NCBI RefSeq assembly: GCF_963666195.1
Contig: NZ_OY762653.1
Span: forward strand, 1,972,501 to 2,036,500
Length of the DNA: 64,000 bases
Direction of reading: 5' to 3'
Source of the DNA: Trichococcus shcherbakoviae
GTDB lineage: Bacteria; Bacillota; Bacilli; Lactobacillales; Aerococcaceae
Numbering within the stretch: position 1 is the first letter of the stretch; every line of letters begins with the position of its first letter. The position numbers and the translations under genes are program-made. The notes beneath the pieces were generated by a model. That model ran no database searches and was not told the DNA's origin. It saw only the letters and a program-made list of their open reading frames with translations. Below, in pieces: positions 2,821-50,946 of the stretch.

Positions 2821-2889
2821 GTCATGGCTGTTGGCGCTTTAGCGACATTACAGACATGATACACTTGAACGTAAGTTCACAGTGTTTCC
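2821..2889 (+). repeat. Double-hairpin repeat, copy A
   Basis: This is the first of four copies in the window (others at 2974, 3523 and 50878). Its order is GTCATG, a variable stem-loop, invariant CATGATACACTTG, then a stem-loop with tetraloop GTAA closed by GAAC/GTTC, then CACAGTGT. The outer TCATG/CATGA and inner ACACT/AGTGT pairings are kept in all copies, while stem bases change in a compensating way. It sits between tRNA-Ser and tRNA-fMet and should be co-transcribed with them. Confidence 0.85.
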
Positions 2890-2899
2890 TTATTATTAT

Positions 2900-2971
2900 C
2901 GCGGGGTGGAGCAGTTGGCAGCTCGCCGGCTCATAACCCGGAGGTCACAGGTTCAAGTCCTGTCCCCGCAA
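2900..2971 (+). tRNA. tRNA-fMet (CAT), initiator, with an anticodon-stem deletion
   Basis: The acceptor stem CGCGGGG/CCCCGCA has the initiator-specific C1-A72 mismatch and the loop is CTCATAA. The gene is 72 nt rather than 74. The 5' anticodon strand reads CCGG against CCCGG on the 3' side, so one G of the diagnostic GGG/CCC stem is missing, and the D-loop (AGTTGGCA) is one base short. It is a real initiator gene by descent. It may be defective, or the two missing bases may be sequencing errors. Confidence 0.85.
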
Positions 2972-2973
2972 TC

Positions 2974-3041
2974 ATCATGATTGTCGCTGCTTCAGCAGCT
3001 TACAAGCATGATACACTTGGGCGCAAGCCCACAGTGTAACC
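2974..3041 (+). repeat. Double-hairpin repeat, copy B
   Basis: This second copy follows the initiator tRNA directly. Stem 1 is GCTGC/GCAGC with loop TTCA. Stem 2 is GGGC/GCCC with a GCAA tetraloop. The invariant CATGATACACTTG and CACAGTGT are intact. Both stems differ from copy A but remain fully paired. Confidence 0.85.
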
Positions 3042-3060
3042 TCATAAAAGTTTTACGCAT

Positions 3061-3133
3061 GGTTCCGTGGTGTAGGGGTCAACATGCCTGCCTGTCACGC
3101 AGGAGATCGCGGGTTCAAATCCCGTCGGAGCCG
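3061..3133 (+). tRNA. tRNA-Asp (GTC), copy 1
   Basis: Acceptor stem GGTTCCG/CGGAGCC and anticodon loop CTGTCAC. It is identical to the tRNA at 3673-3745. Confidence 0.96.
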
Positions 3134-3137
3134 CCAT

Positions 3138-3208
3138 GCGGGTGTAGTTTAGTGGTAAAACCCCAGCCTTCCAAGCTGATGTCGGGAGTTCGATTCTCCT
3201 CACCCGCT
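3138..3208 (+). tRNA. tRNA-Gly (TCC)
   Basis: Acceptor stem GCGGGTG/CACCCGC, anticodon loop CTTCCAA and 71 nt. It is 4 nt after tRNA-Asp. Confidence 0.96.
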
Positions 3209-3219
3209 TTTTTTAAGAA

Positions 3220-3293
<74 letters not shown>

Positions 3294-3332
3294 TTGATAA
3301 AGCAACAATATTAACAGAAAATTTCTTGTTAT

Positions 3333-3420
3333 GGGGAAGTACTCAAGTGGCTGAAGAGGCGCCCCTGCTAAGGGTGTAGGTCGTTAACGCGGCGCGAGGG
3401 TTCAAATCCCTCCTTCTCCG
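3333..3420 (+). tRNA. tRNA-Ser (GCT)
   Basis: A class II tRNA with acceptor stem GGGGAAG/CTTCTCC, anticodon loop CTGCTAA, a long variable arm and discriminator G. Confidence 0.95.
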
Positions 3421-3448
3421 TAGCTTTATCAAAAAAATAAAAAAACAT

Positions 3449-3520
3449 GGTCCGTTGGTCAAGCGGTTAAGACACCGCCCTTTCACGGCGGTAACACGGG
3501 TTCGATTCCCGTACGGATCA
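3449..3520 (+). tRNA. tRNA-Glu (TTC)
   Basis: Acceptor stem GGTCCGT/ACGGATC and anticodon loop CTTTCAC. Confidence 0.96.
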
Positions 3521-3522
3521 TT

Positions 3523-3590
3523 GTCATGGTTGTTACAGCTTCGGCTGTTTTACAGACATGATACACTTGAGCGTCAGCTCACAGTGTTTC
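3523..3590 (+). repeat. Double-hairpin repeat, copy C
   Basis: This third copy lies between tRNA-Glu and tRNA-Val. Stem 1 is ACAGC/GCTGT with loop TTCG. Stem 2 is GAGC/GCTC with loop GTCA. The invariant blocks are unchanged. Confidence 0.85.
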
Positions 3591-3597
3591 TACACCT

Positions 3598-3670
3598 GGA
3601 GGTTTAGCTCAGCTGGGAGAGCGTCTGCCTTACAAGCAGAATGTCGGCGGTTCGATCCCGTCAACCTCCA
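3598..3670 (+). tRNA. tRNA-Val (TAC)
   Basis: Acceptor stem GGAGGTT/AACCTCC and anticodon loop CTTACAA. Confidence 0.97.
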
Positions 3671-3672
3671 TT

Positions 3673-3745
3673 GGTTCCGTGGTGTAGGGGTCAACATGCC
3701 TGCCTGTCACGCAGGAGATCGCGGGTTCAAATCCCGTCGGAGCCG
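3673..3745 (+). tRNA. tRNA-Asp (GTC), copy 2
   Basis: Identical in sequence to the tRNA at 3061-3133, so one of the two arose by duplication or is kept identical by conversion. Confidence 0.96.
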
Positions 3746-3764
3746 TTTTCTAAATTTTTATTTT

Positions 3765-3837
3765 GGTCTGATAGCTCAGTTGGTAGAGCACTTGATTGAA
3801 GCTCAAGGTGTCGGCGGTTCGAATCCGTCTCGGACCA
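3765..3837 (+). tRNA. tRNA-Phe (GAA)
   Basis: Acceptor stem GGTCTGA/TCGGACC and anticodon loop TTGAAGC. It has G at position 37, as I recall for streptococcal tRNA-Phe. Confidence 0.96.
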
Positions 3838-3850
3838 TTTTTTATATGAT

Positions 3851-3931
3851 GGAGGGATAGCGAAGTGGCTAAACGCGGCGGACTGTAAATCCGCTCTTTC
3901 GGGTTCGGCAGTTCGAATCTGCCTCCCTCCA
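3851..3931 (+). tRNA. tRNA-Tyr (GTA)
   Basis: A class II tRNA with acceptor stem GGAGGGA/TCCCTCC, anticodon loop CTGTAAA and a medium variable arm. Confidence 0.96.
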
Positions 3932-3941
3932 TTCTTATTAT

Positions 3942-4015
3942 GGCGATCGTGGCGAAGTGGTTAACGCACCGGTTTGTGGATCCGGCATTCGTGGGTTCAA
4001 TTCCCATCGGTCGCC
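3942..4015 (+). tRNA. tRNA-His (GTG)
   Basis: Acceptor stem GCGATCG/CGGTCGC plus an encoded G-1 opposite C73, the histidine identity element. Anticodon loop TTGTGGA. Confidence 0.95.
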
Positions 4016-4023
4016 CTCTTTAT

Positions 4024-4095
4024 TGGGCTATCGCCAAGCGGTAAGGCAACAGACTTTGACTCTGTCATTCGTTGGTTCGAATCCAGCTAGCCCAG
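4024..4095 (+). tRNA. tRNA-Gln (TTG)
   Basis: Acceptor stem TGGGCTA/TAGCCCA and anticodon loop CTTTGAC. Confidence 0.96.
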
Positions 4096-4117
4096 TTTTT
4101 TCAAATAGTAACACCTC

Positions 4118-4188
4118 GGCGGTATAGCCAAGTGGTAAGGCACAGGTCTGCAAAACCTCTATCACCGGTTCAAATCCGGTTACCGCCT
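4118..4188 (+). tRNA. tRNA-Cys (GCA)
   Basis: Acceptor stem GGCGGTA/TACCGCC, anticodon loop CTGCAAA and discriminator T. Confidence 0.96.
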
Positions 4189-4227
4189 TTCCATGAGTAA
4201 GATGGAAAATTGCATTCTTCATATCAT

Positions 4228-4311
4228 GCCGGCGTGGCGGAATTGGCAGACGCGCTGGACTCAAAATCCAGTGCCCGCGAGGGCGTGCCGGTTCGACCCC
4301 GGCCGCCGGTA
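4228..4311 (+). tRNA. tRNA-Leu (CAA)
   Basis: A class II tRNA with acceptor stem GCCGGCG/CGCCGGT and anticodon loop CTCAAAA. It is the last tRNA of the array. Confidence 0.96.
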
Positions 4312-4318
4312 TCACACA

Positions 4319-4369
4319 AAACAGGCTCCTGACGATGACAGCATCGTTGGGAGCCTGTTTTTTTTTTTC
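4319..4369 (+). terminator. Terminator of the rRNA-tRNA operon
   Basis: Stem AACAGGCTCC/GGAGCCTGTT with an inner CGATG/CATCG helix, followed by ten Ts. It lies 8 nt after the last tRNA. Confidence 0.95.
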
Positions 4370-4398
4370 ATAGTTATACACGAAACTGAAAGGAATAT

Positions 4399-4455
4399 TT
4401 GAAATTGTTTCATTTTAAGTATATAATTCGTTGTAACTTACAAAAAGAAACTTAC
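4399..4455 (+). promoter_or_regulatory. Promoter and HxlR-type operator
   Basis: A TTGAAA -35 (4399-4404) and TATAAT -10 (4422-4427) are 17 bp apart. Just downstream, 4433-4455 reads GTAACTTAC, AAAAAGAA, ACTTAC, a repeated ACTTAC half-site like those bound by HxlR/YodB regulators. A related site lies at 4978-4995. Autoregulation of the following gene is inferred. Confidence 0.65.
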
Positions 4456-4474
4456 TCTCTAAGAGGTGAACAAG

Positions 4475-4813
4475 ATGCTGACCAAAGAAGAATTGCCATT
4501 TTGTCCGGTTGCGACAACCGTTGATCTGATCGGAAATAAATGGAAACTGCTGATAATGCGAGAATTGTTGACTGGGACCAAGCGTTTTAATGAAATGCAC
4601 CGATTGGTGGATGGCATCAGCCAAAAAGTATTGACCGAAAATCTTCGGAAAATGGAGTCTGATGGGATTGTGAAACGGGAAGTATTTCCTGAAGTGCCAC
4701 CCAGAGTGGAATATTCGTTAACCGATCTTGGAGATTCCTTAAGACCGATCATCAACAGTATGAGTGATTGGGGAACCGATTATATCAAAAATAATCTTTT
4801 GGAACAAAAATAA
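4475..4813 (+). CDS. HxlR-family winged-helix regulator
   Basis: A 112-residue DNA-binding protein covering the whole HxlR domain: an N-terminal cap, a helix-turn-helix (about residues 18-65, with GNKWKLLIMRELL and the FNEMHRLVDGISQKVLTENLRKM recognition region, quoted in parts) and a wing (EVPPRVEYSLTDLG). Cys10 in the FCPV motif matches the redox-sensing cysteine of YodB/HypR/QorR proteins, so it may respond to electrophiles or disulfide stress. The ATG at 4475 follows AAGAGGTG by 6 nt. A GTG at 4466 would add three residues but lies inside that ribosome binding site. No obvious target gene is adjacent. Confidence 0.85.
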   Translation: MLTKEELPFCPVATTVDLIGNKWKLLIMRELLTGTKRFNEMHRLVDGISQKVLTENLRKMESDGIVKREVFPEVPPRVEYSLTDLGDSLRPIINSMSDWGTDYIKNNLLEQK

Positions 4814-4898
4814 TCGAGTGTAGGCAAATGAAAAGTGGGTCGCGAATCCAGTATTTTCTGTTATCCGATGCAGAGCCAAAAGCTATATCATTTTCATC

Positions 4899-4942
4899 CT
4901 CCCTTTTGAAGCGTTATAATGCTTCAAAAGGGAGCTTTTTTT
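4899..4942 (+). terminator. Terminator after HxlR gene
   Basis: A 14-bp stem CTCCCTTTTGAAGC/GCTTCAAAAGGGAG followed by eight Ts. Confidence 0.9.
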
Positions 4943-4978
4943 TACAATCAATTGGTGTAACTATCCTTATTGCTGTAG

Positions 4979-4994
4979 CTTACAAAAAGGTAAG
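4979..4994. promoter_or_regulatory. Orphan HxlR-like operator
   Basis: CTTAC and GTAAG flank a 6-bp A-rich spacer. This resembles the CTTAC-AAAAAG element in front of the HxlR gene 540 bp upstream. The arrangement suggests a lost or remodelled target promoter. Confidence 0.4.
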
Positions 4995-5190
4995 TACCTG
5001 ATAAAAAAGTGCGTACTATTGTAAGGGCATCTTTAAAGATATAGTAAGAGTATGGAAAGAGAGAAATATCAGTGAGGCATTAAGTATGTTAGACCAGCAC
5101 TAAAGCCATTCTTGTCTATGTTGCTTGTGCGAAGAAGCTGGTTCAGCGGTAATTTTCGGTGAGTATCTGTTGAATGGGGGAATGCGGGTA

Positions 5191-5481
5191 ATGATAGATC
5201 CTTTATTGGTATTTGCAACAATCTTTGATACTGACATTAAGTTTGCCATTATGTCCCTGTTCCTTTACTACCCGAGCATGAGCTGCAATGACATCGTCCG
5301 AATGACGGGTGAGAAAAAAGAAAATGTCATCACCAGTCTGTGGCGACTGCAAATGGATACGATTGTGGTCAATCAGATTGAGGACGACAGAAACTGCTAT
5401 TACTCCTTGACGAGCAGCGGCACAGCCAGTTTGAAGGTATTTAGCGAGATAGCAGATTTTTCGGAGCGTTGTTTGAAGTGA
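5191..5481 (+). CDS. Small winged-helix regulator of the osmoprotectant operon
   Basis: A protein of about 96 residues with a compact winged-helix fold of the MarR/ArsR kind: helices in the first 40 residues, CNDIVRMTGEKKENVITSLW as the helix-turn-helix, and CYYSLTSSG as the wing. It begins the operon, 13 bp upstream of the first permease gene. That is where GbsR/OpuCR-like repressors of betaine uptake are found, so control of this transporter is likely but inferred. The ATG at 5191 has GGGGG 10 nt upstream. ATG 5182 or an upstream GTG at 5125 are alternatives with poorer spacing. Confidence 0.7.
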   Translation: MIDPLLVFATIFDTDIKFAIMSLFLYYPSMSCNDIVRMTGEKKENVITSLWRLQMDTIVVNQIEDDRNCYYSLTSSGTASLKVFSEIADFSERCLK

Positions 5482-5494
5482 AAGGAGGTCCAAA

Positions 5495-6124
5495 ATGCTA
5501 GTTGATGACATACTGCAATACTTTCAAGAGAATTTTAGTCAATATTTGATTTACGTTTACCAGCACCTTGGATTGAGTATCCAGGCAATCGGAATTTCTT
5601 GTCTGATCGGCATTCCGCTGGGATACATCAGCCACCAGCACCGGAAACTCAGCCAGATGATCACCCTCAGTTCCCAAGCCTTGCGGATCATCCCCAGTTT
5701 GGCGGTCCTCTTTATATTGATCTCCTTCATAGGCGTCGGAAGGGTTCCAGCTTTGATCGCATTGGTGTTGCTGGGCATTCCGCCGATTTTGGTCAATACA
5801 ACAGTCGGATTCCTGGAAGTTCCTGCTGTGATGATCGAAACGGGAAAGGGTTTGGGGATGACCGATCGGGAGCTCTTGAAAAGGGTAAAGATTCCGCTGG
5901 CTTTTCCTTTTGTGATGACTGGTGTGAAGCTTGCTTTAGTGGAAATCATCTCGAGTGCGACGCTGGCAACATACATCGGTGCTGGTGGATTAGGAACATT
6001 GATTTTTACAGGATTGGGTTTGAACAGGATGGATCTGCTTCTCATTGGAGGGGTATCGGTAGCGATGATTGCCTTCACGACAAGCATCTTTCTTGATTAC
6101 ATAATTAAAAGGAGCGTAAATTAA
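5495..6124 (+). CDS. Osmoprotectant ABC transporter permease (OpuCB/ProW-like)
   Basis: A 209-residue membrane protein with five to six predicted transmembrane helices and the BPD_transp_1 coupling loop (ETGKGLGMTDRELLKRVKIP). The IIPSLAVLFILISFIGVGR stretch is typical of betaine/carnitine/choline permeases of the QAT family. It has AAAGGAGG 6 nt before the ATG, and its stop codon abuts the start of the substrate-binding gene, so translation is coupled. It should pair with the second permease at 7812 to form the channel. Confidence 0.9.
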   Translation: MLVDDILQYFQENFSQYLIYVYQHLGLSIQAIGISCLIGIPLGYISHQHRKLSQMITLSSQALRIIPSLAVLFILISFIGVGRVPALIALVLLGIPPILVNTTVGFLEVPAVMIETGKGLGMTDRELLKRVKIPLAFPFVMTGVKLALVEIISSATLATYIGAGGLGTLIFTGLGLNRMDLLLIGGVSVAMIAFTTSIFLDYIIKRSVN

Positions 6125-7024
6125 ATGAAAAGAAATAATATTATCAGTACGATTGCAATGTTGGCCGTAGCACTTATAGTCTCAGGGTGTTCAAGTTTGG
6201 GTGGCGGAAGTACGGAAGATACAGTCATCCGAGTGGGTTCCAAGGATTTTACCGAAAACTTAGTTGTTTCGGAAATTTATGCCTTGGCTTTGGAAGATGC
6301 CGGTTATGAGGTTGAACGGATCCCGAATATCGCCAGCTCGGTCGTTCATACATCGATCACCAATGATGAAATCGATCTTTATCCGGAGTATACAGGTACA
6401 GGTCTGTTGGTAATATTGGAAATGGAGATGGAAACCGATCCGCAGAAAGTCTATGACACAATCAAAGCAGAATACGCAGAGCAGTTTGATCTGACTTGGT
6501 TGGATTATGCGGAAGCCAATGACAGCGCTGGGCTGGTCATCAAAACGAGCGTAGCCGAAAAATACGGCATTGAGACCATTTCCGATCTGCAGAAAAATGC
6601 TTCAGAGCTTCGTTTTGCTTCCCAAGGTGAATTCGATCTGAGGGAAGATGGCATTCCTGGATTGACTAAAGCTTACGGAGAATTCAACTGGAAGAGCTCG
6701 ACAGTCTACGACAACAGCTTGAAATATGAAGTCTTGAAAAATGATGAAGCCGATGTCGCACCAGCCTACACGACGGAAGGTCAACTGACCAATAAAGAAG
6801 AATTCACAGTTTTGGTGGATGACAAAAATTTCTGGCCGCCGTATAACTTGGCTCCAGTAATCCGTAATGAAGTATTGGAAGAAAATCCTGAGATTGCAGA
6901 AATTTTGAACAACATCAGCAGCATGCTGGATACAGAAACTGTGACCGGGTTGAATGCCAAAGTGGACGTCGATGGACAAGAATATGAAGCGGTAGCGAAA
7001 GAATACTTCGAATCAATTAATTAA
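6125..7024 (+). CDS. Osmoprotectant-binding lipoprotein (OpuCC-like)
   Basis: A 299-residue extracytoplasmic solute receptor. A signal peptide ends in the lipobox VSGC (Cys22), which should be lipidated. The mature part is an OpuAC/ProX-type type II binding fold, with the hallmark VGSKDFTENLVVSEIYALAL near residue 38 and DLYPEYTGTG near residue 97. Substrates of this family are glycine betaine, carnitine, choline and similar compounds. The exact one cannot be read here. An AAAGGAG ribosome binding site lies upstream, and the gene sits between a permease and the ATPase. Confidence 0.92.
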   Translation: MKRNNIISTIAMLAVALIVSGCSSLGGGSTEDTVIRVGSKDFTENLVVSEIYALALEDAGYEVERIPNIASSVVHTSITNDEIDLYPEYTGTGLLVILEMEMETDPQKVYDTIKAEYAEQFDLTWLDYAEANDSAGLVIKTSVAEKYGIETISDLQKNASELRFASQGEFDLREDGIPGLTKAYGEFNWKSSTVYDNSLKYEVLKNDEADVAPAYTTEGQLTNKEEFTVLVDDKNFWPPYNLAPVIRNEVLEENPEIAEILNNISSMLDTETVTGLNAKVDVDGQEYEAVAKEYFESIN

Positions 7025-7041
7025 GGAGGCGTTGAGGCCGC

Positions 7042-7815
7042 ATGGAGCAAACCGCGATAGAATTCAAAAATGTGACGAAGCTCTACGGGGAAGGGGGCAC
7101 GAAAGCAGTCGATGATATCTCCTTTGAAATTAAGGAGGGCGAGTTCATCACTGTCCTGGGCTCTTCCGGCTCCGGCAAAACGACGACTTTAAAAATGATC
7201 AACCGCCTGATCCGTGAAGATGAAGGACACATAACCTTCTTCGGAGAAGACATCAGTTCAATGAACGAAGTGGATCTTAGGCGAAAAATCGGCTATGTCG
7301 TCCAACAGATTGGCCTGTTTCCGCATATGACCGTAGCCCAAAACATCGCGACAGTTCCGGAACTGCTGAAGTGGGACAAGAAGAAAATCCAATCCCGCAT
7401 CAAAGAATTGCTGGAACTTGTCCAACTGGATCCAGAAGTGTTTGCCGACAGAAAGCCGAAACAATTATCCGGCGGGCAACAACAGCGTATCGGCGTTGCG
7501 AGGGCGCTTGCCGCCAATCCGAAAGTGATGCTGTTGGATGAACCGTTTGGAGCGGTCGATGCGATTACGCGCCTGCAACTGCAAAATGAACTGCAAAAGA
7601 TTCATAAAGAATTGGGCGACAAAACTTTTGTGCTGGTCACCCATGACATCAATGAGGCGTTCAAGCTAGGGATGAGAGTTCTGATAATGGACAAAGGCAA
7701 GATTTGTCAATTTGATACGCCGCGGGAAATCATGCGGAATCCGAAAACGGAGTTTGTTGCGAACTTGATTGCCACCGTAAAGGAACAAGAGGCATTTTGG
7801 AGTGAGTTGAAATGA
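7042..7815 (+). CDS. Osmoprotectant ABC transporter ATPase (OpuCA-like, no CBS domains)
   Basis: A 257-residue nucleotide-binding subunit with Walker A GSSGSGKTT (residues 40-48), signature LSGGQQQR, Walker B VMLLDEPFGAVD and the H-loop VTHD. It belongs to the proline/glycine betaine QAT ATPases. Most OpuCA proteins are about 380 residues and end in two CBS domains that sense ionic strength. This one stops right after the ATPase core, so osmotic gating must be absent or done by another part. It overlaps the next permease gene by 4 bp (ATGA). Confidence 0.93.
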   Translation: MEQTAIEFKNVTKLYGEGGTKAVDDISFEIKEGEFITVLGSSGSGKTTTLKMINRLIREDEGHITFFGEDISSMNEVDLRRKIGYVVQQIGLFPHMTVAQNIATVPELLKWDKKKIQSRIKELLELVQLDPEVFADRKPKQLSGGQQQRIGVARALAANPKVMLLDEPFGAVDAITRLQLQNELQKIHKELGDKTFVLVTHDINEAFKLGMRVLIMDKGKICQFDTPREIMRNPKTEFVANLIATVKEQEAFWSELK

Positions 7816-8435
7816 TTGCATACTGGAATACTTACCATGAAAAACTGTTGACCGCCACGATGCAGCACATCGAATTAGTGGGGACGACCCTGACGATTGC
7901 GATCCTCATTGCAAGTGGCATAATTCTGGCTTGCATGCATCAGGAACGCGTGATGAACGGTTTGATCTACTTGACGTCATTGCTTTATTCGATCCCAAGC
8001 CTGGCTCTGTTTGCCATTTTGATCCCGTTGACTGGCCTGGGAAGGAACACGGCCATCATCGTGTTGGTGATTTATTGCCAATATGTCCTGTTGCGCAGTT
8101 TTTCTGCAGGAATCAAGGAAATCGATCCGACCATCATCGAAGCCGCTGTCGGGATGGGCATGACGAGAAATCAAATGTTCAGGAAAATCCAGCTTCCGTT
8201 GGCAATGTCATCCATAATCGCAGGGATACGGATCGCCGCGACCTCGACAATCGGCATCGCAACCATCGCCGCAACAATCAATGCGGGCGGATTGGGGACA
8301 GTCCTTTTCGATGGCTTGCGGACATTCAGCGTCGTAAAACTGTTGTGGGGCACTGTGCTGTCGATGTTTTTGTGTCTGTTTGTCAATGTCGTCTTGTACT
8401 TGCTCGAGAACGCGTTGCGACGGAGATTTGCCTGA
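7812..8435 (+). CDS. Osmoprotectant ABC transporter permease (OpuCD-like)
   Basis: A 207-residue membrane subunit, the partner of the permease at 5495. It has the same coupling loop (EAAVGMGMTRNQMFRKIQLP) and the IPSLALFAILIPLTGLGR signature, with TIAATINAGGLG in the conserved region. The start overlaps the ATPase stop (ATGA), making it the last gene of a four-gene transporter operon. Confidence 0.9.
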   Translation: MIAYWNTYHEKLLTATMQHIELVGTTLTIAILIASGIILACMHQERVMNGLIYLTSLLYSIPSLALFAILIPLTGLGRNTAIIVLVIYCQYVLLRSFSAGIKEIDPTIIEAAVGMGMTRNQMFRKIQLPLAMSSIIAGIRIAATSTIGIATIAATINAGGLGTVLFDGLRTFSVVKLLWGTVLSMFLCLFVNVVLYLLENALRRRFA

Positions 8436-8456
8436 TTTTTTCAAAGGAGTGATCGC

Positions 8457-9332
8457 TTGAGTGATATCTGGAACCCGTGGCACGGCTGCAAAAAGGTCAG
8501 CCCGGGATGCCAAAATTGTTATATGTTTCATTTGGACAGTCAACGAGGGAAAGATGGCGCGCTGATTTACAAAGTCCAGAGCAGTTTCGATCGTCCGCTG
8601 AAAAGGAACCGGCGCGGCGACTACGTCATACCGCCCGGTTCCACGATACGCGTCTGCATGACTTCTGACTTCTTTCTTGAGGAAGCGGACGAGTGGCGCG
8701 GCGAAGTCTGGAAGATGATTGAAAAGCGGTCGGACGTGCTGTTCTACTTGTTGACGAAAAGAATCGAACGCGTGAAAGATTGTCTGCCTGAAAATTGGGG
8801 AGACGGTTGGGAAAACGTGTGGATGAATGTCTCTGCCGAAAACCAAAAGATGGCCGATAGGCGGATTCCGGTACTCCTAGATCTGCCTTTCAAACATCGA
8901 GGCATCATGGCCGCACCGTTGATCGGCGAAATCGACTTGACGAAGCATTTGTCATCCGGAAAAATCGAACGCGTCATCGTCGGCGGGGAAAACTATGACG
9001 GGGCAAGGGAATGCCAATATGAATGGGTGCAGAGGATGCACCAAGACTGCGTGATAAATAATGTGAACTTCGAGTTCATCGAAACCGGGAATCATTTTGT
9101 GAAGAACGGACGGAAGTATGAAATTTTGGACAAAAGAAAGCAGCAGGAGCAAGCAAAGAAATCCGGCTTGTTTTATGAAGGGCGTGCGGTTTCGGTTCAT
9201 CTGACGGAAGTTGCCCAGGGCGAATCGGTGCCGCTTTTTCGAACCGACGCCGTGACTTTGTGCGATTCCTGTGCCTACAAGAAATTTTGCGGTACGCAAT
9301 CCGGCAGCCCCAGCTGCATGTTATCATTATGA
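8457..9332 (+). CDS. DUF5131 (Gp37/Gp68-like) family protein
   Basis: A 291-residue protein with the family N-terminus IWNPWHGCKKVSPGCQNCYM (Cys11, Cys18, Cys21), a cysteine triad reminiscent of radical-SAM iron-sulfur sites. A second cysteine cluster lies at the C-terminus (CDSCAYKKFC and a final Cys). Homologues are common in phages and mobile DNA, with no firmly assigned reaction. The start is TTG at 8457, supported by AAAGGAG 8 nt upstream. ATG codons further in would remove the cysteine triad. It follows the transporter operon by 21 bp and may be co-transcribed. Function unknown. Confidence 0.8.
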   Translation: MSDIWNPWHGCKKVSPGCQNCYMFHLDSQRGKDGALIYKVQSSFDRPLKRNRRGDYVIPPGSTIRVCMTSDFFLEEADEWRGEVWKMIEKRSDVLFYLLTKRIERVKDCLPENWGDGWENVWMNVSAENQKMADRRIPVLLDLPFKHRGIMAAPLIGEIDLTKHLSSGKIERVIVGGENYDGARECQYEWVQRMHQDCVINNVNFEFIETGNHFVKNGRKYEILDKRKQQEQAKKSGLFYEGRAVSVHLTEVAQGESVPLFRTDAVTLCDSCAYKKFCGTQSGSPSCMLSL

Positions 9333-9356
9333 AAAATTAAGACAGAGGGTGGAAGA

Positions 9357-10340: not shown

Positions 10341-10383
10341 GGTTGCGTTTCCACAGGTTATTGGTTAGAATTTAATGAGAAAC

Positions 10384-10470
10384 ACTGGGGGTGCGCGTAA
10401 GCGCTGAGACCGACACTGTCGGAACTCTTTGTACCTGATCTAGTTCATACTAGCGTAGGGAATGTGGCGT
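10384..10470 (+). promoter_or_regulatory. TPP riboswitch 1
   Basis: It contains the thi-box elements GGGGTGC, GCTGAGA and ACCTGATCTAG...CTAGCGTAGGGA in the right order and spacing. It is followed by its own terminator and then by a second TPP aptamer. It should reduce expression of thiW when thiamine pyrophosphate is plentiful. Confidence 0.93.
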
Positions 10471-10494
10471 TTGACTATTCGCATAATAGACATC

Positions 10495-10542
10495 AAAACG
10501 TTATATTTTCTGATTTTCGCATCAGATTATATAGCGTTTTTT
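10495..10542 (+). terminator. Terminator of TPP riboswitch 1
   Basis: A long stem (AACGTTATAT...ATATAGCGTT with inner CTGAT/ATCAG) followed by Ts. It is placed as the expression platform of the first aptamer. Confidence 0.8.
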
Positions 10543-10548
10543 AATTTC

Positions 10549-10636
10549 AGTAGGGGTGCGCAACTGCGCTGAGACCGACACTGTCGGAACCCTTCAAACC
10601 TGATCCAGTTCGTACTGGCGGAGGGAACTGAGCTTG
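10549..10636 (+). promoter_or_regulatory. TPP riboswitch 2
   Basis: The second thi-box has the elements GGGGTGC, GCTGAGACC, ACCTGATCCAG and CTGGCGGAGGGA. It is very similar to the first in its P3 arm (CCGACACTGTCGG in both), which suggests a local duplication. Confidence 0.94.
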
Positions 10637-10659
10637 GTCTGGAATCCGTACGTATATCC

Positions 10660-10690
10660 AAGACATCTCAGGGGAGGTGTCTGTTTATTT
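10660..10690 (+). terminator. Terminator of TPP riboswitch 2
   Basis: Stem AGACATCT/AGGTGTCT followed by a T-rich run, between the second aptamer and thiW. Confidence 0.75.
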
Positions 10691-10774
10691 TCATTCAATT
10701 CAGGGAGGAGGGGGAACGGCTCGCATAGGTCAGGATTAAAAAGGAATCATTCAAACTGAAAAGGGGAAAACATT

Positions 10775-11266: not shown

Positions 11267-11293
11267 GAAAAGGCTGTTATATAAATTAACTAA

Positions 11294-11327
11294 GAAACAA
11301 CCGGAACGTGAACCGGTTGTTTTTTTG
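11294..11327 (+). terminator. Terminator after thiW
   Basis: Stem AACAACCGG/CCGGTTGTT followed by seven Ts. Confidence 0.92.
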
Positions 11328-11432
11328 CCGTTCTCCGAGATATAGCCGCTGATCGAAGCTGGCGATTATTTCCGTTGTTCTCCACCGGTAAACGGGTGAG
11401 CATGGTAGCAGGCGACTAACATTAATGCGAAA

Positions 11433-11487: not shown

Positions 11488-11563
11488 TCAGCGTAGAGAA
11501 AAGGCGAAGTCAAAAATGCGTACCTCGCTTTTGGCGTTTGCGCACAGCAGGAGGCAACAAGCA

Positions 11564-42891: not shown

Positions 42892-42993
42892 TACAGTCTA
42901 TCCTCCCGGAAATTACACGATTTCAATCCCCATTATACCGTAATGGCTAGACTTGAAACAAGCTAACCTTTACATTTGGCTGATTAAGGAAAG

Positions 42994-43030
42994 GCAAATG
43001 GCCCGAAGCAGGTTGCCTCGGGCCATTTGC
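42994..43030. terminator. Terminator downstream of the PTS permease
   Basis: A 13-bp stem GCAAATGGCCCGA/TCGGGCCATTTGC with a pyrimidine-rich tail on the minus strand. Confidence 0.85.
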
Positions 43031-43070
43031 TAGGAAAGAACAGAGAATGCAGTTTCCGGATTGAATCAGC

Positions 43071-44399: not shown

Positions 44400-44424
44400 T
44401 GGTCATTTTCCTCTCTTAGAAAAC

Positions 44425-45819
44425 TTATGCGTCAAAACCATTTTTGTCTGAAACCTGTTTAAACCAGTAACCACTTTTCTTGATTGTGCGTTTTCCTTCT
44501 TCCGCCAGATCGACCGCAATGAAGCCGTAGCGGTTTTTGTAGGCGTTTGTCCAGGACCAGTTATCCATGCACGTCCACATATGGTAACCTTTCACGTTGC
44601 AACCCTCCTGCAACGCTTGATGGACATATTTCAGATGATCTTGGACAAATTCGATACGGTAATCATCTTCGATCATGCCATCCGCGTTGATGAAGCGCTC
44701 TTCGCCTTCCACACCCATCCCGTTTTCGGAAATGTAGCAGGGCAGGTTTCCGTAGTTGTCACGGACGTTGATCAGGCAATCATAAATGCCTTTTTCGTAG
44801 ATTTCCCAGCCACGGTATGGATTCATTTTGCGTTCCGGCCAGATGTAATTGTCGAAGTAATCATCCGGCATCGGGTTGTCGGACAAGCGTTCCGTGCTTT
44901 CTTTTTTCATGATGCGTCTTGGCTGATAGTAATTGATCCCCAGAATGTCGATGGTATTATGTTTGATGAGTTCTAATTCCGATTGCGTATATTCCGGTAG
45001 GTAATCCAATTCCTTCAGCAGCGAAACCAAATCTTCGGGGAAGGTGCCTTTGATGGCAGGGTCCAAGAAGGAACGGTTGAAGAAGGCATCAGCGAGACGG
45101 GCTGCCTTGACGTCTTCAGGATCATTCTCATTGCGCGGGTAACTAGGCGTCAGATTGAGGATGATGCCGATTTGCCCGTCAAGGTTCATTTCATGATAAA
45201 TTTTGATGGCTTTTGCGCTTGACAACGTTTCGTGATAAGCGACTTGAGCGGCTTTTTTCATATCCACGACACTAGGGTAGTGGAATTGGTAGAGATAGCC
45301 GCCTTCGACCGGAACAATCGGTTCATTGTGGGTGAACCATTTTTTTACGCGGTCGCCGAACAGTTCGAAGCAGATGCGCGCGTAATCCGCATAGGCATCC
45401 ACGACTTCTTTGCTTTCCCAGCCTCCTTTCTGTTGTAATGACAACGGCATATCAAAGTGATAAAGATTCATGAAAGGTTCGATGCCGTTGGCCAATAGCT
45501 CGTCGATGTAGCTATTGTAAAACGCCACCGCCTCAGGATTCACTGCGCCGATCCCATCCGGAATCAGACGGCTCCATTGAATGGAGGTTCGGTACGTAGT
45601 GTGTCCCGTTTTTTTCATGAGTGCTATATCTTCTTTGTAGCGATTGTATACGTAGGATGTGTCTTCAGGACCGACTTGATTGAAGAACAGCTCTGGGTTC
45701 TGTTTGTACCAATGATCCCAGATGCTGTCTCCTTTGCCGTCTCCGGCAACCGTGCCCTCTGTCTGCGGTCCGCTTGCTGCCGAGCCCCACCAAAAACCTG
45801 CAGGAAATTCGTATTTCAT
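44425..45819 (-). CDS. 6-phospho-beta-glucosidase (GH1)
   Basis: A 464-residue GH1 enzyme cleaving phosphorylated beta-glucosides in the cytoplasm. The N-terminus is FPAGFWWGSAASGPQTEG, the acid/base is Glu166 in FTHNEP and the nucleophile is Glu365 in YISENGMG. A Lys/Tyr phosphate-binding pattern near the C-terminus (NRYGFIAVD) fits the phospho-specific group. The minus-strand promoter has TTGCAT and TATAAT 17 bp apart with a cre box on the -35. First gene of a two-gene operon with celB. Confidence 0.93.
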   Translation of the reverse strand: MKYEFPAGFWWGSAASGPQTEGTVAGDGKGDSIWDHWYKQNPELFFNQVGPEDTSYVYNRYKEDIALMKKTGHTTYRTSIQWSRLIPDGIGAVNPEAVAFYNSYIDELLANGIEPFMNLYHFDMPLSLQQKGGWESKEVVDAYADYARICFELFGDRVKKWFTHNEPIVPVEGGYLYQFHYPSVVDMKKAAQVAYHETLSSAKAIKIYHEMNLDGQIGIILNLTPSYPRNENDPEDVKAARLADAFFNRSFLDPAIKGTFPEDLVSLLKELDYLPEYTQSELELIKHNTIDILGINYYQPRRIMKKESTERLSDNPMPDDYFDNYIWPERKMNPYRGWEIYEKGIYDCLINVRDNYGNLPCYISENGMGVEGEERFINADGMIEDDYRIEFVQDHLKYVHQALQEGCNVKGYHMWTCMDNWSWTNAYKNRYGFIAVDLAEEGKRTIKKSGYWFKQVSDKNGFDA

Positions 45820-45886
45820 CTAAACAACTCCATTTCTATGTCTATACATAACTTCAAAAAGAATTATACAAAACAAAAAAAGAAAA

Positions 45887-45900
45887 TGCAATCGATTTCA
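45887..45900 (-). promoter_or_regulatory. cre box at the GH1-celB promoter
   Basis: TGCAATCGATTTCA fits the CcpA consensus fully. It overlaps the -35 TTGCAT of a minus-strand promoter whose TATAAT -10 is at 45865-45870, so glucose repression by promoter occlusion is likely. Confidence 0.8.
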
Positions 45901-46008
45901 AAGAAAAATATATATTTTTATTATTTCTCAATTATTTCCGCTTTTTAGCGAGAATTCGCAACGAAATTATGGTATAAAAAGAACAAACAGGTTTGGAGGC
46001 GATAGGTG

Positions 46009-46929
46009 ATGAAAATTGGAGTCATCGGGTTAGGTAACATTGCACAAAAGGCGTATCTCCCGGTCATGGTCGAGATGCAGGATGAGGTGGAATGGCATCT
46101 GTGCTCGCGAAACAGAGAGAAGCTGGAAGCCGTAGGAAAAAAATTTGGCTTCCAGCATTTGTATACCTCGATCGAGGAATGGTTGGACAGCGGAATCGAG
46201 GCTGCCTTTGTGCACGTAGCTACCGTTGCCCATGCGGAAATCATCCGCAAGTTGCTGGAGCGCGGCATTTCGGTCTATGTGGACAAGCCCATCAGTGATG
46301 ATCTGGAAGAAACAAAGCAATTGATTGAGTTGGCGGACGCTAAGGGCTTGCTCCTTACAGCTGGCTTCAACCGCCGTTTTGCTCCGATGGTGGAACGGTT
46401 GAAAGGGATTCCTGACAAAAAGATGATCCTTATTCAGAAGGATCGCGTGAAGAACGTGGAACCCGTCCGCTTCGCCGTCTACGATTTGTTCATCCATATC
46501 GCGGATACCGCTTTGTATTTGTTGGATGATGAGGTGGTGTCGGTGCAATCGCATCTGGTCGAAAACGAAGGGGAGTTGAAACGGCTATGGCTGATGCTCG
46601 AAACGAAGAGCGCCACTTGTTTCGTTTCGATGAACTATGAAGCGGGAGCCAATCAGGAAGTCATGGAAGTCCAAAGTCCGGAGGGGATCGCGCGCGTCCT
46701 GAATTTGACCGATATGACCATCCAACAAAAAAATGGCAAGCAGCAAATTGCTTTCGGCGATTGGGAAGGGACGCTCCGCAAAAGAGGATTCGAGCCATTG
46801 ATCGATTCGTTTGTCGCGGGCGTAAAGGAACATACCAACCCAGTCTCCACAGAATCAAGCTATCTGAGCCATTCGTTGTGCGAGAAAATTCTCGCCGACA
46901 ACGGATTCGGAAACAAGCCAAACGGATAG
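46009..46929 (+). CDS. Gfo/Idh/MocA-family oxidoreductase
   Basis: A 306-residue NAD(P)-dependent dehydrogenase. The Rossmann start is KIGVIGLGNIAQKAYLPV. YVDKPISDDLEETKQLIELA carries the conserved EKP-like motif as DKP, and AGFNRRFAPM follows. The C-terminal substrate domain lacks features that fix a substrate. GGAGG lies 10 nt before ATG 46009; GTG 46006 is equally possible. It is a monocistronic gene. Confidence 0.88.
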   Translation: MKIGVIGLGNIAQKAYLPVMVEMQDEVEWHLCSRNREKLEAVGKKFGFQHLYTSIEEWLDSGIEAAFVHVATVAHAEIIRKLLERGISVYVDKPISDDLEETKQLIELADAKGLLLTAGFNRRFAPMVERLKGIPDKKMILIQKDRVKNVEPVRFAVYDLFIHIADTALYLLDDEVVSVQSHLVENEGELKRLWLMLETKSATCFVSMNYEAGANQEVMEVQSPEGIARVLNLTDMTIQQKNGKQQIAFGDWEGTLRKRGFEPLIDSFVAGVKEHTNPVSTESSYLSHSLCEKILADNGFGNKPNG

Positions 46930-47034
46930 AATGTTTTTTTGTAGGTACAAATTATGTTTATTTGTTAATTTGTTCGTACATATCTGGTATAATGTAAATC
47001 AGCAAGGCCTAGGATCATCAAAAGGAGGTGAAGG

Positions 47035-48420
47035 ATGACAAAAGATATGACTGCCGGCAGTCCTGCGAAGCTGCTTGTGCTGTTCTCGGTTCCGATGCTG
47101 ATTGGGAATATCTTCCAACAACTGTACAGCTTAGCGGACACAATCATCATCGGCAGAACATTGGGAGTGGACGGACTGGCGGCCATCGGATCGGTAGGCG
47201 GGGTGCTCTTTTTTATCCATGGATTTGGGATCGGGGTCACTTCGGGTTTAGGGATCGTCATCGCGCAGCGTTTTGGTACGAAAAATGAGGAGCGGATCCG
47301 GAAGAGTATCACGATAAGCGTCTGGATAACGCTCATCATGACTGTCCTCATAACCCTCCTGAGTGTTTTGTTCGCTGAAGATATCCTGCTGTACATGGAT
47401 ACGCCGGCTGAAATAAGCAAGGAAGCCGAAGCCTACTTTTTGACATTGATGTGGGGTTCGGTGGCGATCATGGTGTTCAATTTGTTGAGTAACATCCTGC
47501 GCTCGCTGGGCGACAGCAAACTGCCCCTGGTCATCCTGATGATTTCTTCCCTATTGAATGTGGTTTTGGATTATGTGTTCATTGTCTGGTTTTCTATGGG
47601 GGTCGCAGGAGCGGCGCTGGCGACTGTTGCGTCGCAATTGTTCGCCAGTTTTCTCTGTTTCGTATACATAAGTAAGAAAATGGCGATCCTGCGTTTCTCC
47701 AGAGAAGATTGGCACATGCAGCCTACGGATTTCTCGTTGCCGTTGAAAATTTCGCTCCCGATCGGTCTGCAAGCCTCCATCATTTCGATCGGTTTGATTG
47801 TATTGCAGAAAAGTCTGAATGGTTTTGGCCCGGAAGCTGTCGGTGGATACGCCATCGCCCAAAAATTGGACATCATGGTAACATTGCCGATAGCTTCCAT
47901 CGGTATCGCTATGGCCACTTTCGCAGCCCAAAACTATGGAGCCGGTTTGTACTCGCGGATTTGGGCGGGCGCCCGCATCAGTTTGCTGCTGTCTTTTGTC
48001 TACAGCATTCTGTTGGGAGGAGCGCTTTTGTTCTTCGGGACGGATCTCATCCGGTCGTTGTTCAATCAGAATGATCCGGCCGTATTGGCGTATGCGCATA
48101 CGTATTTTGTTGCCACGGCCAGCTTCTATCTTGTATTGACGACGTTGATCATCTTGCGGTATACGCTGCAAGGAGTTGGGGAAAACGCTGCGCCTACCTT
48201 TGGTGGTGTAATGGAGATGGTCGCTCGCGTCCTCGTTCCGTTGGGATTTTCCGGTCTGCTGGGCTACCAGGCTGTCGCCTTTGCCAATCCCGTTGCTTGG
48301 GTGGGGGCTGCCGTACCCATGATGTACGCTTATCGTCAGTTGAAAAGAAAATTGACATTATTGGAAGAGAAAAGATGCAAGGAAGCCGAGGGTGAGCGAT
48401 TGGTTGAATTGTCGGATTGA
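47035..48420 (+). CDS. MATE-family efflux transporter
   Basis: A 461-residue exporter with twelve predicted helices in two MatE repeats. The first repeat has SVPMLIGNIFQQLYSLADTI, the DinF/NorM-like signature, and the second has GLQASIISIGLIVLQ with FAAQNYGA. The C-terminal tail is charged. MATE proteins expel cationic drugs in exchange for Na+ or H+; substrate unknown here. AAAGGAGGTG precedes the ATG. Confidence 0.92.
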   Translation: MTKDMTAGSPAKLLVLFSVPMLIGNIFQQLYSLADTIIIGRTLGVDGLAAIGSVGGVLFFIHGFGIGVTSGLGIVIAQRFGTKNEERIRKSITISVWITLIMTVLITLLSVLFAEDILLYMDTPAEISKEAEAYFLTLMWGSVAIMVFNLLSNILRSLGDSKLPLVILMISSLLNVVLDYVFIVWFSMGVAGAALATVASQLFASFLCFVYISKKMAILRFSREDWHMQPTDFSLPLKISLPIGLQASIISIGLIVLQKSLNGFGPEAVGGYAIAQKLDIMVTLPIASIGIAMATFAAQNYGAGLYSRIWAGARISLLLSFVYSILLGGALLFFGTDLIRSLFNQNDPAVLAYAHTYFVATASFYLVLTTLIILRYTLQGVGENAAPTFGGVMEMVARVLVPLGFSGLLGYQAVAFANPVAWVGAAVPMMYAYRQLKRKLTLLEEKRCKEAEGERLVELSD

Positions 48421-48477
48421 TAATCCATTATTGATGCATATCTAAGTTAATAAACCGATATAAACCGATTCGGAATA

Positions 48478-48615
48478 TGCTATAATAAGATTAAATCATG
48501 ATTGTAAAAGTTGGTTGCCCCTCGAACGGAATAGTTTAGGGTAAGCCGGCATGGTTCAGGTTGTGTGTTCGTTTAGGAGTTCAATACTAGATTCACTATC
48601 TTGAGGAGGAAAAAA
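48478..48615 (+). promoter_or_regulatory. Promoter and leader of the transketolase gene
   Basis: An extended -10 TGCTATAAT ends at 48486, preceded by two AAACCGAT direct repeats (48452 and 48462). The resulting leader of about 125 nt has GGTTGCCCC and GGGTAAGCC stretches but no riboswitch that I recognise. Confidence 0.5.
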
Positions 48616-50619
48616 ATGTTTGATCAAATTGATGAGTTAGCAGTTAATGCAGTACGTACACTTAGCATAGACGCCGTACAGAAGGCCAATTCAGGGCATC
48701 CTGGTTTGCCGATGGGAGCCGCTCCGATGGCCTACGCGCTTTGGACAAAACATTTGAAAGTCAACCCTAAGAACAGTTTATGGGCAGACCGTGACCGTTT
48801 CGTATTATCAGCTGGACATGGGTCATCCATGTTGTACAGCTTGCTGCACTTATCCGGCTTCAATGTGAGCCTGGACGACGTGAAGAACTTCCGCCAATTC
48901 GGCAGCAAAACACCTGGACACCCGGAAGTGCATGATACGGACGGCGTGGAAGCGACAACCGGTCCATTGGGACAAGGGATCGCGAATGCAGTCGGTTTCG
49001 CAATGGCGGAAGCGCACTTGGCGGCTACTTACAACAAAGAAAACTTCCCGGTTGTGGATCACTACACCTACTTCCTGAACGGCGACGGCGATCTGATGGA
49101 AGGCATCTCCCATGAAGCAGCCAGCTTAGCCGGCCACCTGAAATTGGGCAAACTGATCGGTTTGTATGACTCCAATGATATCTCCTTGGATGGACCGACT
49201 TCGAAATCATTCACTGAAGATGTAGCTGCCCGTTTTGAAGCCTACGGTTGGCAACATATCCTGGTCAAGGACGGCAATGATCTGGAAGCCATCTCCAAAG
49301 CCATCGAAGAAGCGAAAGCTGAAACCGAAAAACCGACTTTGATTGAAATCAAAACCATCATCGGCTTTGGTGCTCCTGACGCAGGAACGCATAAAGTGCA
49401 TGGTGCTCCTCTTGGAGCGGAAGGCGTTACATTTGCTAAAGCGGCTTACGGCTGTGCGGATGAAGCTTTCTGCGTACCGGCTGAAGTGACAACCCGTTTC
49501 GACGAAACAATGGTTGCAGAAGGCCAAGAGGCTGAAGCCGCATGGACAGCAATGTTCAACGACTACAAAGCAGCTTATCCGGAATTGGCGCAACAATTCG
49601 AAGCTGCCATCGACGGTAAATTACCTGAAGGCTGGCAAGACAAACTGCCGACTTATGAAGTGGGCAGCGCAGCCAAAGCTAGCCGTGTGACCAGTGCTGA
49701 AGCGATCCAAGCATTGGGTGAAGCTGTACCTTATTTCTGGGGTGGTTCTGCGGACTTATCGTCTTCAAACAACACAATGATCAAATCGGCAAGTGACTTT
49801 GAGCCGGGCAACTATGCCGGCCGCAACATCTGGTACGGTGTGCGCGAATTCGCGATGGCCGCTATCATGAACGGCATCGTGCTGCATGGCGGAACCAGAA
49901 CGTATGTAGGGACATTCTTCGTCTTCACGGATTACCTACGTCCAGCAATGCGTTTGGCTGCCATCTCGCACTTGCCTGGCACGTACGTGATGACGCATGA
50001 CTCAATCGCGGTCGGCGAAGACGGCCCGACGCATGAGCCAGTGGAACACTTGTCCAGCTACCGTGGCATGCCGAACTTGACGGTTCTGCGTCCGGCCGAC
50101 GGCAACGAAGTCAGTGCTGCTTGGGAAATCGCCGTGTCTTCAGCGGACAAACCAACGATGTTGGTGCTGACGCGCCAAAACTTGCCTGTTTTGGAAGGCA
50201 CAAAAGAAATGGCCCGCGAAGGCGTGAAGAAGGGGGCATATGTGCTTTCTCCGCAACAAGGCGAAACACCTGCCGGCATTCTGATCGCAACCGGTTCGGA
50301 AGTGAGCATGGCTGTGGAAGCGCAGCAACAATTGCGTGAAGCTGGAGTGGACGTCTCTGTTGTCTCCATGCCGAGTTTCGATCTGTTCGAAGCCCAGGAT
50401 GCTGCCTACAAAGAGCAAGTCTTGCCTGGTGCAGTCCGCAACCGTATGTCCATCGAGATGGGCGCTACCTTCGGTTGGGAACGTTATGTCGGCCTGGATG
50501 GCCTTGCTTACGGCATCGATACTTACGGCGCAAGCGGCAATGGCAACGTCGTAATGGCGGAATATGGCTTCACTACTGAAAAAGTGGTTGCAGCCTATCA
50601 AGCAAAATTCACAAAATAG
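48616..50619 (+). CDS. tkt: Transketolase
   Basis: A 667-residue thiamine-diphosphate enzyme of the pentose phosphate pathway. Motifs are [20 protein letters not shown], the ThDP-binding [20 protein letters not shown] with DSNDIS, and the second-domain [33 protein letters not shown] carries conserved catalytic histidines. GAGGAGG precedes ATG 48616; TTG 48601 overlaps that site. It can channel pentose phosphates made from arabinose to glycolysis, which fits the arabinan locus downstream. Confidence 0.96.
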
Positions 50620-50638
50620 ACTTCAATTTTAGGAATCA

Positions 50639-50683
50639 AAAAGCTGCGACCCACTCCGGGAGGAGTGGGTCGCAGCTTTTTTG
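50639..50683 (+). terminator. Terminator after tkt
   Basis: A 19-bp stem AAAAGCTGCGACCCACTCC and its complement with a short GG loop, then Ts. Confidence 0.95.
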
Positions 50684-50689
50684 TTGAGC

Positions 50690-50877
50690 ATAAAGGAATT
50701 TATAAAATGTTTTATGCATCAAAAATGATGGCTAGCTTCACGGGTAAGCCCTTCGGAAAGGACAAAGGAACCCCTTGTCTCTACGAGCCAAGGATACTAT
50801 TCGACTAACCTGCTGACGCAGGAAGTCTCTCAGCATATTGCGCTCTACGATGCTCAGTCGGCACGATTTCCTAAATT
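50690..50877. other. Unexplained intergenic block next to double-hairpin copy D
   Basis: This non-repetitive stretch has no strong gene. A 32-codon frame on the minus strand (start near 50832) and a 33-codon frame on the plus strand (ATG 50708) exist, but neither has a good ribosome binding site or known similarity. Local hairpins such as CCTGCTGACGCAGG are visible. It runs straight into the conserved hairpin element at 50878, so it could be part of a larger repeat or RNA. Confidence 0.35.
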
Positions 50878-50946
50878 GTCATGACTCTTGCGATTTCAAT
50901 CGCTTAGAGGCATGATACACTTGACCGTTTAGGTCACAGTGTTTCC
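50878..50946 (+). repeat. Double-hairpin repeat, copy D
   Basis: The fourth copy lies 47 kb from the tRNA array, between tkt and the arabinan regulator. Stem 1 is GCGAT/ATCGC with loop TTCA. Stem 2 is GACC/GGTC with a five-base GTTTA loop. Invariant GTCATG, CATGATACACTTG and CACAGTGTTTCC are conserved. Confidence 0.85.

What the first reader, a model, noticed from the sequence alone, without database searches (positions are those of the whole stretch)
2821..50946. Covarying double-hairpin element in four copies, three of them inside the tRNA array
Copies at 2821-2889, 2974-3041, 3523-3590 and 50878-50946 share GTCATG, CATGATACACTTG and CACAGTGT, yet their stems differ with full compensation. 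Stem 1 is GCTGC/GCAGC, ACAGC/GCTGT or GCGAT/ATCGC (copy A is less regular). Stem 2 is GAAC/GTTC, GGGC/GCCC, GAGC/GCTC or GACC/GGTC, with GNNA-like loops in three copies. Covariation across all copies points to selection on RNA (or cruciform DNA) structure. Inside pre-tRNA transcripts it could guide processing, bind a protein, or be a mobile palindrome. I do not recognise it as a named family.
Basis: partly seen in the sequence, partly recalled or inferred. Interest (0 to 1): 0.78.

Follow-up and report, generated by a model that had tools for sequence, protein, structure and literature searches.

The report
Double-hairpin repeat behind tRNA genes
A 66-letter repeat that folds into two neighbouring hairpins is scattered through many lactic-acid-type bacteria, both as a building block of larger scattered repeats and as a spacer directly behind tRNA genes, where its fold has lasted although its letters changed.

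Summary
The four copies fold as two abutting hairpins with a bulged C (z -4.5 to -5.3). They belong to a family with 8 good copies in this genome and matches in 51 of 295 genomes sampled across the order, 16 of 75 genera. Covariation is strong: 12 of 25 pairs changed on both sides, score 0/500 shuffles. It also holds among copies from two tRNA spacers taken across genera. No Rfam family reaches its cut-off for it.

Copy D is an optional arm of a 255-bp BOX-like composite repeat (35 matches to its 5' outer module in this genome). The site is empty in three relatives, one of the same species, but two others carry shorter composites there, so insertion and loss cannot be told apart. Copies in tRNA arrays stand alone: 38 of 43 start 0-2 nt after the upstream tRNA, all sense. 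Jeotgalibaca copies abut 5S rRNA in antisense.

Best reading: a module of non-autonomous, BOX-like modular repeats, retained and probably co-opted in tRNA arrays. Mobiliser unknown; a pre-tRNA function is inferred, not shown.

The parts
2821..2885 (+). Copy A of the double hairpin, spacer after tRNA-Ser(tga); hairpin I 2821-2860, hairpin II 2861-2885
2799..2816 (+). Small extra hairpin (about GTGGCCTCAGGCCAT) between tRNA-Ser and copy A; it sets copy A 24 nt off the tRNA end. Position by eye, plus or minus a few bases
   Evidence: read; offset
2974..3037 (+). Copy B, spacer between tRNA-Met(cat) and tRNA-Asp; hairpin I 2974-3012, hairpin II 3013-3037
   Evidence: spacer covariation
3523..3587 (+). 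Copy C, spacer between tRNA-Glu and tRNA-Val; hairpin I 3523-3562, hairpin II 3563-3587
50878..50942 (+). Copy D, inside the composite repeat; hairpin I 50878-50916, hairpin II 50917-50942
50726..50980 (+). BOX-like composite repeat (255 bp core) that carries copy D; further repeat-derived sequence lies upstream from about 50683
50734..50752 (+). 5' outer module strand of the long-range terminal helix
50953..50976 (+). 3' outer module strand of the long-range terminal helix

Best explanation
The element is a roughly 66-nt structural module of a Lactobacillales-wide set of non-autonomous, modular, hairpin-rich dispersed repeats of a BOX-like kind. Shown: a two-hairpin fold kept by compensatory change; many dispersed copies; in Trichococcus it is an optional arm of composites of 126-391 bp whose ends pair and covary and whose sites are filled in some relatives and empty in others. 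Shown: in tRNA arrays it stands alone, sense, with its first stem 0-2 nt behind the upstream tRNA in 38 of 43 copies. Inferred: the repeats are or were moved in trans by an unidentified enzyme that recognises the folded single strand. Inferred: in tRNA arrays the module is read as part of the pre-tRNA, so that RNase Z cleavage would leave a UU-plus-two-hairpin trailer that could block 3' exonucleases and keep neighbouring tRNAs apart, which would explain why the fold lasted there.
For: Fold and stability; covariation. Dispersal: 8 good hits in this genome, 22 of 76 family genomes, 51 of 295 order genomes. Modular composites with and without the double hairpin, 13 of 13 Trichococcus genomes with the 5' outer module, paired and covarying ends over 13 chosen copies. 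Filled and empty sites. Of 62 intergenic copies, 20 lie between convergent and 7 between divergent genes, and in tandem gaps 20 are sense and 15 antisense: a mobile repeat's pattern, not a leader's. tRNA arrays: 45 of 45 tRNA-neighbouring copies sense, 38 of 43 within 0-2 nt; spacer-wise covariation with 13 of 25 pairs changed on both sides in each of two spacers.
Against: No mobilising enzyme and no clean target duplication was found. At the tkt site two relatives carry shorter composites at the same place (G001 and G007), so a recent insertion in the window's genome is not shown. Copies beside 5S rRNA are antisense (8 of 8 examined), so a sense-strand role cannot be general. A Trichococcus array has an empty Glu-Val spacer. 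The tree places copies by position within Trichococcus but mixes spacers in Alkalibacterium, so spacer covariation may partly come from replacement rather than change in place. The reverse strand folds nearly as well. No transcript data.
Confidence: 0.6

Rival explanations
1. Purely selfish repeat: its place behind tRNA genes reflects a preference for the ends of stable-RNA genes or other hairpins, and it does nothing for the tRNA operon.
For: Antisense copies abutting 5S; composites beside terminators; empty spacers in relatives; no orientation bias in tandem gene gaps.
Against: Fold kept with compensation among copies of the same tRNA spacers over 12 and 10 genomes; half-changed and re-paired stems in one array; all 45 tRNA-neighbouring copies sense.
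Confidence: 0.3
2. A structured RNA gene or cis element of stable-RNA operons that came first and was later captured by mobile composites.
For: In Alkalibacterium-like genomes the copies that I looked at lie in tRNA arrays, always at the tRNA end; position clusters on the tree (15 changes against 34.8 shuffled).
Against: Wider spread in dispersed composites in other genera and families; no RNA family or transcript known.
Confidence: 0.15
3. Intrinsic terminator or attenuator inside the tRNA array.
For: Stable hairpins in transcribed spacers.
Against: Hairpin II is followed by TTTC, AACC and the like, not by a T-run, and tRNA genes continue on the same strand.
Confidence: 0.03

Closest known systems
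BOX elements of Streptococcus pneumoniae and S. suis (PMC3049150; search listing and passages seen)
   Same: Short dispersed repeats built from modules: outer modules whose ends pair, optional inner modules, intergenic, predicted to fold as RNA.
   Different: Different sequence and modules; a double hairpin that also stands alone behind tRNA genes; no target duplication found here, whereas BOX is reported to make one.
E. coli tRNA-linked repeats (PMC8144298; search listing and passages seen)
   Same: Repeats in tRNA and rRNA operons directly behind the mature RNA.
   Different: tRNA-linked repeats carry 18-19 bp of the upstream tRNA or rRNA 3' end; no such copy is seen here by eye.
REP/RAYT and IS200/IS605-type single-strand elements (recalled)
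   Same: Imperfect hairpins with a bulge as the recognised form; non-autonomous copies moved in trans.
   Different: No Y1 transposase gene found flanked by the hairpins (13 loci); presence of Y1 genes does not track the element beyond one genus.
Bacillaceae-1 RNA (Rfam RF01690; only its row in the motif table of PMC2864571 seen; the rest recalled)
   Same: Recalled as two hairpins sometimes near rRNA operons.
   Different: Not among the matches listed in any Rfam scan of these sequences.

Membership tests
BOX elements | Modular repeat with outer modules that pair and optional inner modules | tested here: met
   forms of 126, 186, 252, 255, 323 and 391 bp; terminal helix 93.8% paired over 13 chosen copies
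BOX elements | BOX module sequences (boxA, boxB, boxC) | not tested
   no BOX sequence was fetched; R1 gave few matches per genome in the Streptococcus-like genus, which is no direct test
BOX elements / MITEs | Target-site duplication on insertion | tested here: inconclusive
   filled and empty sites show no clean duplication; boundaries blurred by divergence
MITEs | Terminal inverted repeats shared with an autonomous element | tested here: inconclusive
   ends pair; no autonomous element was found among the loci read
REP/RAYT or IS200/IS605-type | Y1 transposase gene associated with the hairpins | tested here: not met
   of 13 Y1 loci, L142 has a partial match about 1.5 kb away in a tRNA array, L165 a 31.7-bit match to another repeat 220 bp away, L167 E 0.4; none flanked. 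Y1 genes in 15 of 22 genomes with and 21 of 54 without R1 matches
E. coli tRNA-linked repeats | Copy of the upstream tRNA or rRNA 3' end inside the repeat | tested here: not met
   by eye: the copies end in AGTGT plus TTTC, AACC and the like
Rfam families (release 15) | Score at or above a family's gathering cut-off | tested here: not met
   best sub-threshold match over a copy S774, 25.9 bits against 48, E 0.77
Intrinsic terminator | Hairpin followed by a T-run | tested here: not met

The most novel reading that the evidence does not exclude
The double hairpin is a module that docks at the ends of stable-RNA genes (tRNA 3' end in sense, 5S in antisense), and in tRNA operons it has become a kept part of the transcript that is cut out as a spacer RNA of roughly 75-100 nt. 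The same fold would serve a mobile repeat as its single-strand recognition signal and tRNA maturation as a 3' barrier or released RNA: a BOX-like repeat turned into a tRNA-operon RNA over several genera.
Probability: 0.2. Interest if true: 0.82.

Novelty: new variant of a known kind. Interest (0 to 1): 0.6.

Why it matters
Small dispersed repeats are mostly taken for debris. Here the fold rather than the sequence has lasted across several families of an order, and the same module sits in scattered composites and, almost to the nucleotide, behind tRNA genes. That allows a direct test of whether a mobile repeat can be turned into a tRNA-processing or spacer RNA, and gives a covariance model for repeats that no Rfam 15 family matched at gathering level. 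It is also a caution: covariation in a dispersed element does not by itself prove an RNA function.

Tried and rejected
Intrinsic terminator: no T-run, and the array continues. Rfam: nothing at gathering; S774 judged chance. Viral carriage: 0 exact matches in viral contigs, one exact pattern only. Y1 transposase as mobiliser: in the Jeotgalibaca-like genus the four genomes with elements have a Y1 gene and the two without have none, but over 76 genomes the link is weak and 0 of 13 Y1 loci are flanked by the hairpins. Target duplication: none clean at three sites. Recent insertion at the tkt site: I held this until, which showed shorter composites at the same place in G001 and G007; the direction is open, and I set the confidence of the best explanation at 0.6 for that reason. 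The 31.7-bit matches in G022 and G046 belong to another repeat of about 260 bp and are not counted as members. The G-T/A-C count (139 strings) counted some copies twice; one search replaces it (131 cores, one row of the 260-bp repeat dropped). Tree: 28 of 54 inner branches open. Rows left out: from the Met-Asp alignment A6 the second L241 copy and the hairpin-I-only matches of L222 and L239; all tRNA- and 5S-neighbouring copies. Papers: seven answered searches listed none that by title or abstract start describes this element; two searches returned nothing, and most subscription journals are not held.

Full report
WHAT IS THERE. The four copies are real and in place. Each is two abutting hairpins. 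Hairpin I is closed by GTCATG/CATGAT (ATCATG in copy B), has an inner helix of about 4 bp, a TT-type bulge and a 5-bp top helix with a four-base loop; copy A has a mismatch in the top helix. Hairpin II is a 10-bp helix, ACACTTGNNC with GNNCA-c-AGTGT, with one bulged C. Free-energy folding gives this architecture for all four (copy C with the inner helix one pair shorter), with 0 of 200 shuffles as stable and z from -4.45 to -5.30. The two reverse complements tried fold almost as well (z -4.42 and -5.91). The core pattern is found 4 times in the window and in none of 100 shuffles.

COVARIATION. On 28 chosen copies 96.7% of 699 cells are standard pairs, 12 of 25 pairs have changes on both sides, and the score is 0.375 against 0.150 (0/500 shuffles); the number of further pair types is not above chance (142/500). 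Sliding the 3' partners drops pairing to 19-52%. Over 131 distinct copies G-T wobbles outnumber A-C mismatches on the element's strand: 200 to 67 in all, 104 to 65 without the near-fixed first pair. The pair at the base of hairpin II runs the other way (6 to 25), and on the hand-picked alignment alone the count is only 11 to 6 (it replaces). Copies are related and most rows were aligned by the model, so this is a hint of single-strand selection, not a test. Other closing stems seen by eye are CCATA/TATGG, CTTTA/TAAAG and CTCTA/TAGAG.

HOW FAR IT SPREADS. Own genome: 8 good and two weak hits. Family: 22 of 76 genomes at E <= 0.01. Order sample: 51 of 295 genomes, 16 of 75 genera, in four family codes, at E <= 0.001. 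Named records with the exact core are Trichococcus species, Jeotgalibaca caeni, two Alkalibacterium, one Enterococcus sp. and three contigs labelled Sedimentibacter sp. SX930 that look like Trichococcus. None is among viral contigs. Copy numbers above about 30 in G022 and G046 are not claimed, because identical 31.7-bit hits there come from another repeat.

LIFE ONE, COMPOSITE REPEATS. In Trichococcus the module is an arm of composites; those read through ran from 126 to 391 bp. A 79-base query from the 5' outer module has matches in 13 of 13 genomes, 35 in this one, some of them short. Forms with and without the double hairpin differ by one block between CCTAAAT and TTC; a second, divergent double hairpin can take the place of a small hairpin elsewhere in the composite. 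The two ends of the composite pair over 16 base pairs: 93.8% of cells paired, 8 pairs changed on both sides (4/500 shuffles reach that), over 13 chosen copies. Copy D lies in such a composite, 50726-50980, between tkt (ends 50619; gene name from its sequence, recalled) with its terminator and a gene on the other strand. At that site the same-species genome G115 (97% identical in the flank), G005 and G003 are empty, but G001 carries a minimal composite there with a similar left flank, and G007 another form. G004, G010 and G008 show no composite in the 330 nt printed but have different spacers; G002 was not resolved; G006 and G011 gave another genomic place. So presence differs within one species, but insertion and loss cannot be told apart, and inner modules differ between genomes at one place. 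Two further sites are likewise filled in some relatives and empty in others. Of 62 intergenic copies, 20 lie between convergent genes, 20 sense and 15 antisense between tandem genes, and 7 between divergent genes (genes by a crude longest-ORF rule).

LIFE TWO, STABLE-RNA OPERONS. In tRNA arrays the module stands alone. I examined 48 tRNA-array rows from fetched loci (not a census): 2 were duplicates and 1 lay beside 5S; the other 45 are sense to their tRNA neighbours. In 2 of these the upstream tRNA could not be placed; of the remaining 43, 38 have stem I starting 0-2 nt after the tRNA end called by ARAGORN. The exceptions are 8, 19, 24, 24 and 70 nt; the 19 and both 24, including window copy A, have a small extra hairpin in between. 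The spacers used follow tRNA-Ser(tga), two kinds of tRNA-Met(cat), tRNA-Glu and tRNA-Val, in Trichococcus-, Jeotgalibaca- and Alkalibacterium-like genomes. Among Met-Asp spacer copies (16 rows, 12 genomes) 95.7% of cells pair, among Ser spacer copies (12 rows, 10 genomes) 92.2%; in each, 13 of 25 pairs changed on both sides and 0/500 shuffles reach pairing or score. Rows from one genome are not independent. One array (L187) shows a half-changed closing stem and a re-paired one in neighbouring copies. Downstream spacer remnants also look alike between Trichococcus and Alkalibacterium-like genomes (by eye). Against simple descent, copies cluster by position within Trichococcus but mix between spacers in Alkalibacterium: 15 changes of position on the tree, 34.8 in shuffles, 6 the least possible. 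In Jeotgalibaca-like genomes 8 of 8 copies examined beside 5S are antisense to it, and a Trichococcus array has an empty Glu-Val spacer. So a role in stable-RNA maturation cannot be general.

ELSEWHERE. In a genus that looks like Streptococcus, copies lie after what reads as the end of rpsI; in two g34 genomes tandem copies lie between what read as pgk and tpiA, the first at the stop codon (gene names read by eye, not tested). The Jeotgalibaca-type composite context also occurs in f2 genomes.

MECHANISM. Shown: fold, covariation, modularity, polymorphic sites, position. Inferred: an enzyme supplied in trans that reads the folded single strand; Y1 transposases were the natural suspects (recalled) but were not tied to the element. 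Inferred: in pre-tRNA the UU-plus-hairpin trailer next to the RNase Z site (recalled) acts as a barrier or is released as a spacer RNA. A purely selfish repeat with a taste for the ends of RNA genes is a serious rival.

KNOWN KINDS. The closest is the pneumococcal BOX family (PMC3049150, passages): composite, pairing ends, optional inner modules. E. coli tRNA-linked repeats (PMC8144298, passages) share the place but are defined by a copy of the RNA's 3' end, not seen here. Of Bacillaceae-1 I saw only a table row (PMC2864571).

VERDICT. A real family of double-hairpin modules that no Rfam family matched; a new variant of a known kind (BOX-like modular repeats) with a striking, testable tie to tRNA 3' ends.

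Noticed in passing
window 2899-2973: The tRNA-Met(cat) gene between copies A and B has one G fewer in the anticodon stem (GCCGGCTCATAA) than other arrays (GCCGGGCTCATAA, L015); ARAGORN calls it tRNA-??? with a four-base anticodon. A damaged gene or a sequencing error.
   Followed up: partly
window 10377-10643: Two TPP riboswitch aptamers in tandem (10377-10479 and 10542-10643).
   Followed up: no
G022 and G046, e.g. L145 around 446-690, L147, L149: Another dispersed repeat of about 260 bp, at least 24 near-identical occurrences in the loci read (some loci overlap), often ending just before an A-tract and a terminator-like hairpin; two copies stand in tandem (L173, L182).
   Followed up: partly
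L187 2240-2700 (G001): tRNA-Glu plus its double hairpin is repeated in tandem as a unit inside one tRNA array, with changed and re-paired closing stems.
   Followed up: partly
L292 (G004), L280 (G001): Composite forms with long perfect palindromes: GGAAACACTGTGACC-loop-GGTCACAGTGTTTCC in L292 and a minimal composite reduced to one long hairpin in L280, as if one arm had been copied onto the other.
   Followed up: no
L058, L067, L070 (records titled Sedimentibacter sp. SX930): Contigs carry Trichococcus-type tRNA array and composites, so the public record may be mislabelled or mixed.
   Followed up: no
L242, L244 (g34 genomes): Tandem row of double hairpins in what reads as the pgk-tpiA gap, starting at the stop codon.
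   Followed up: partly
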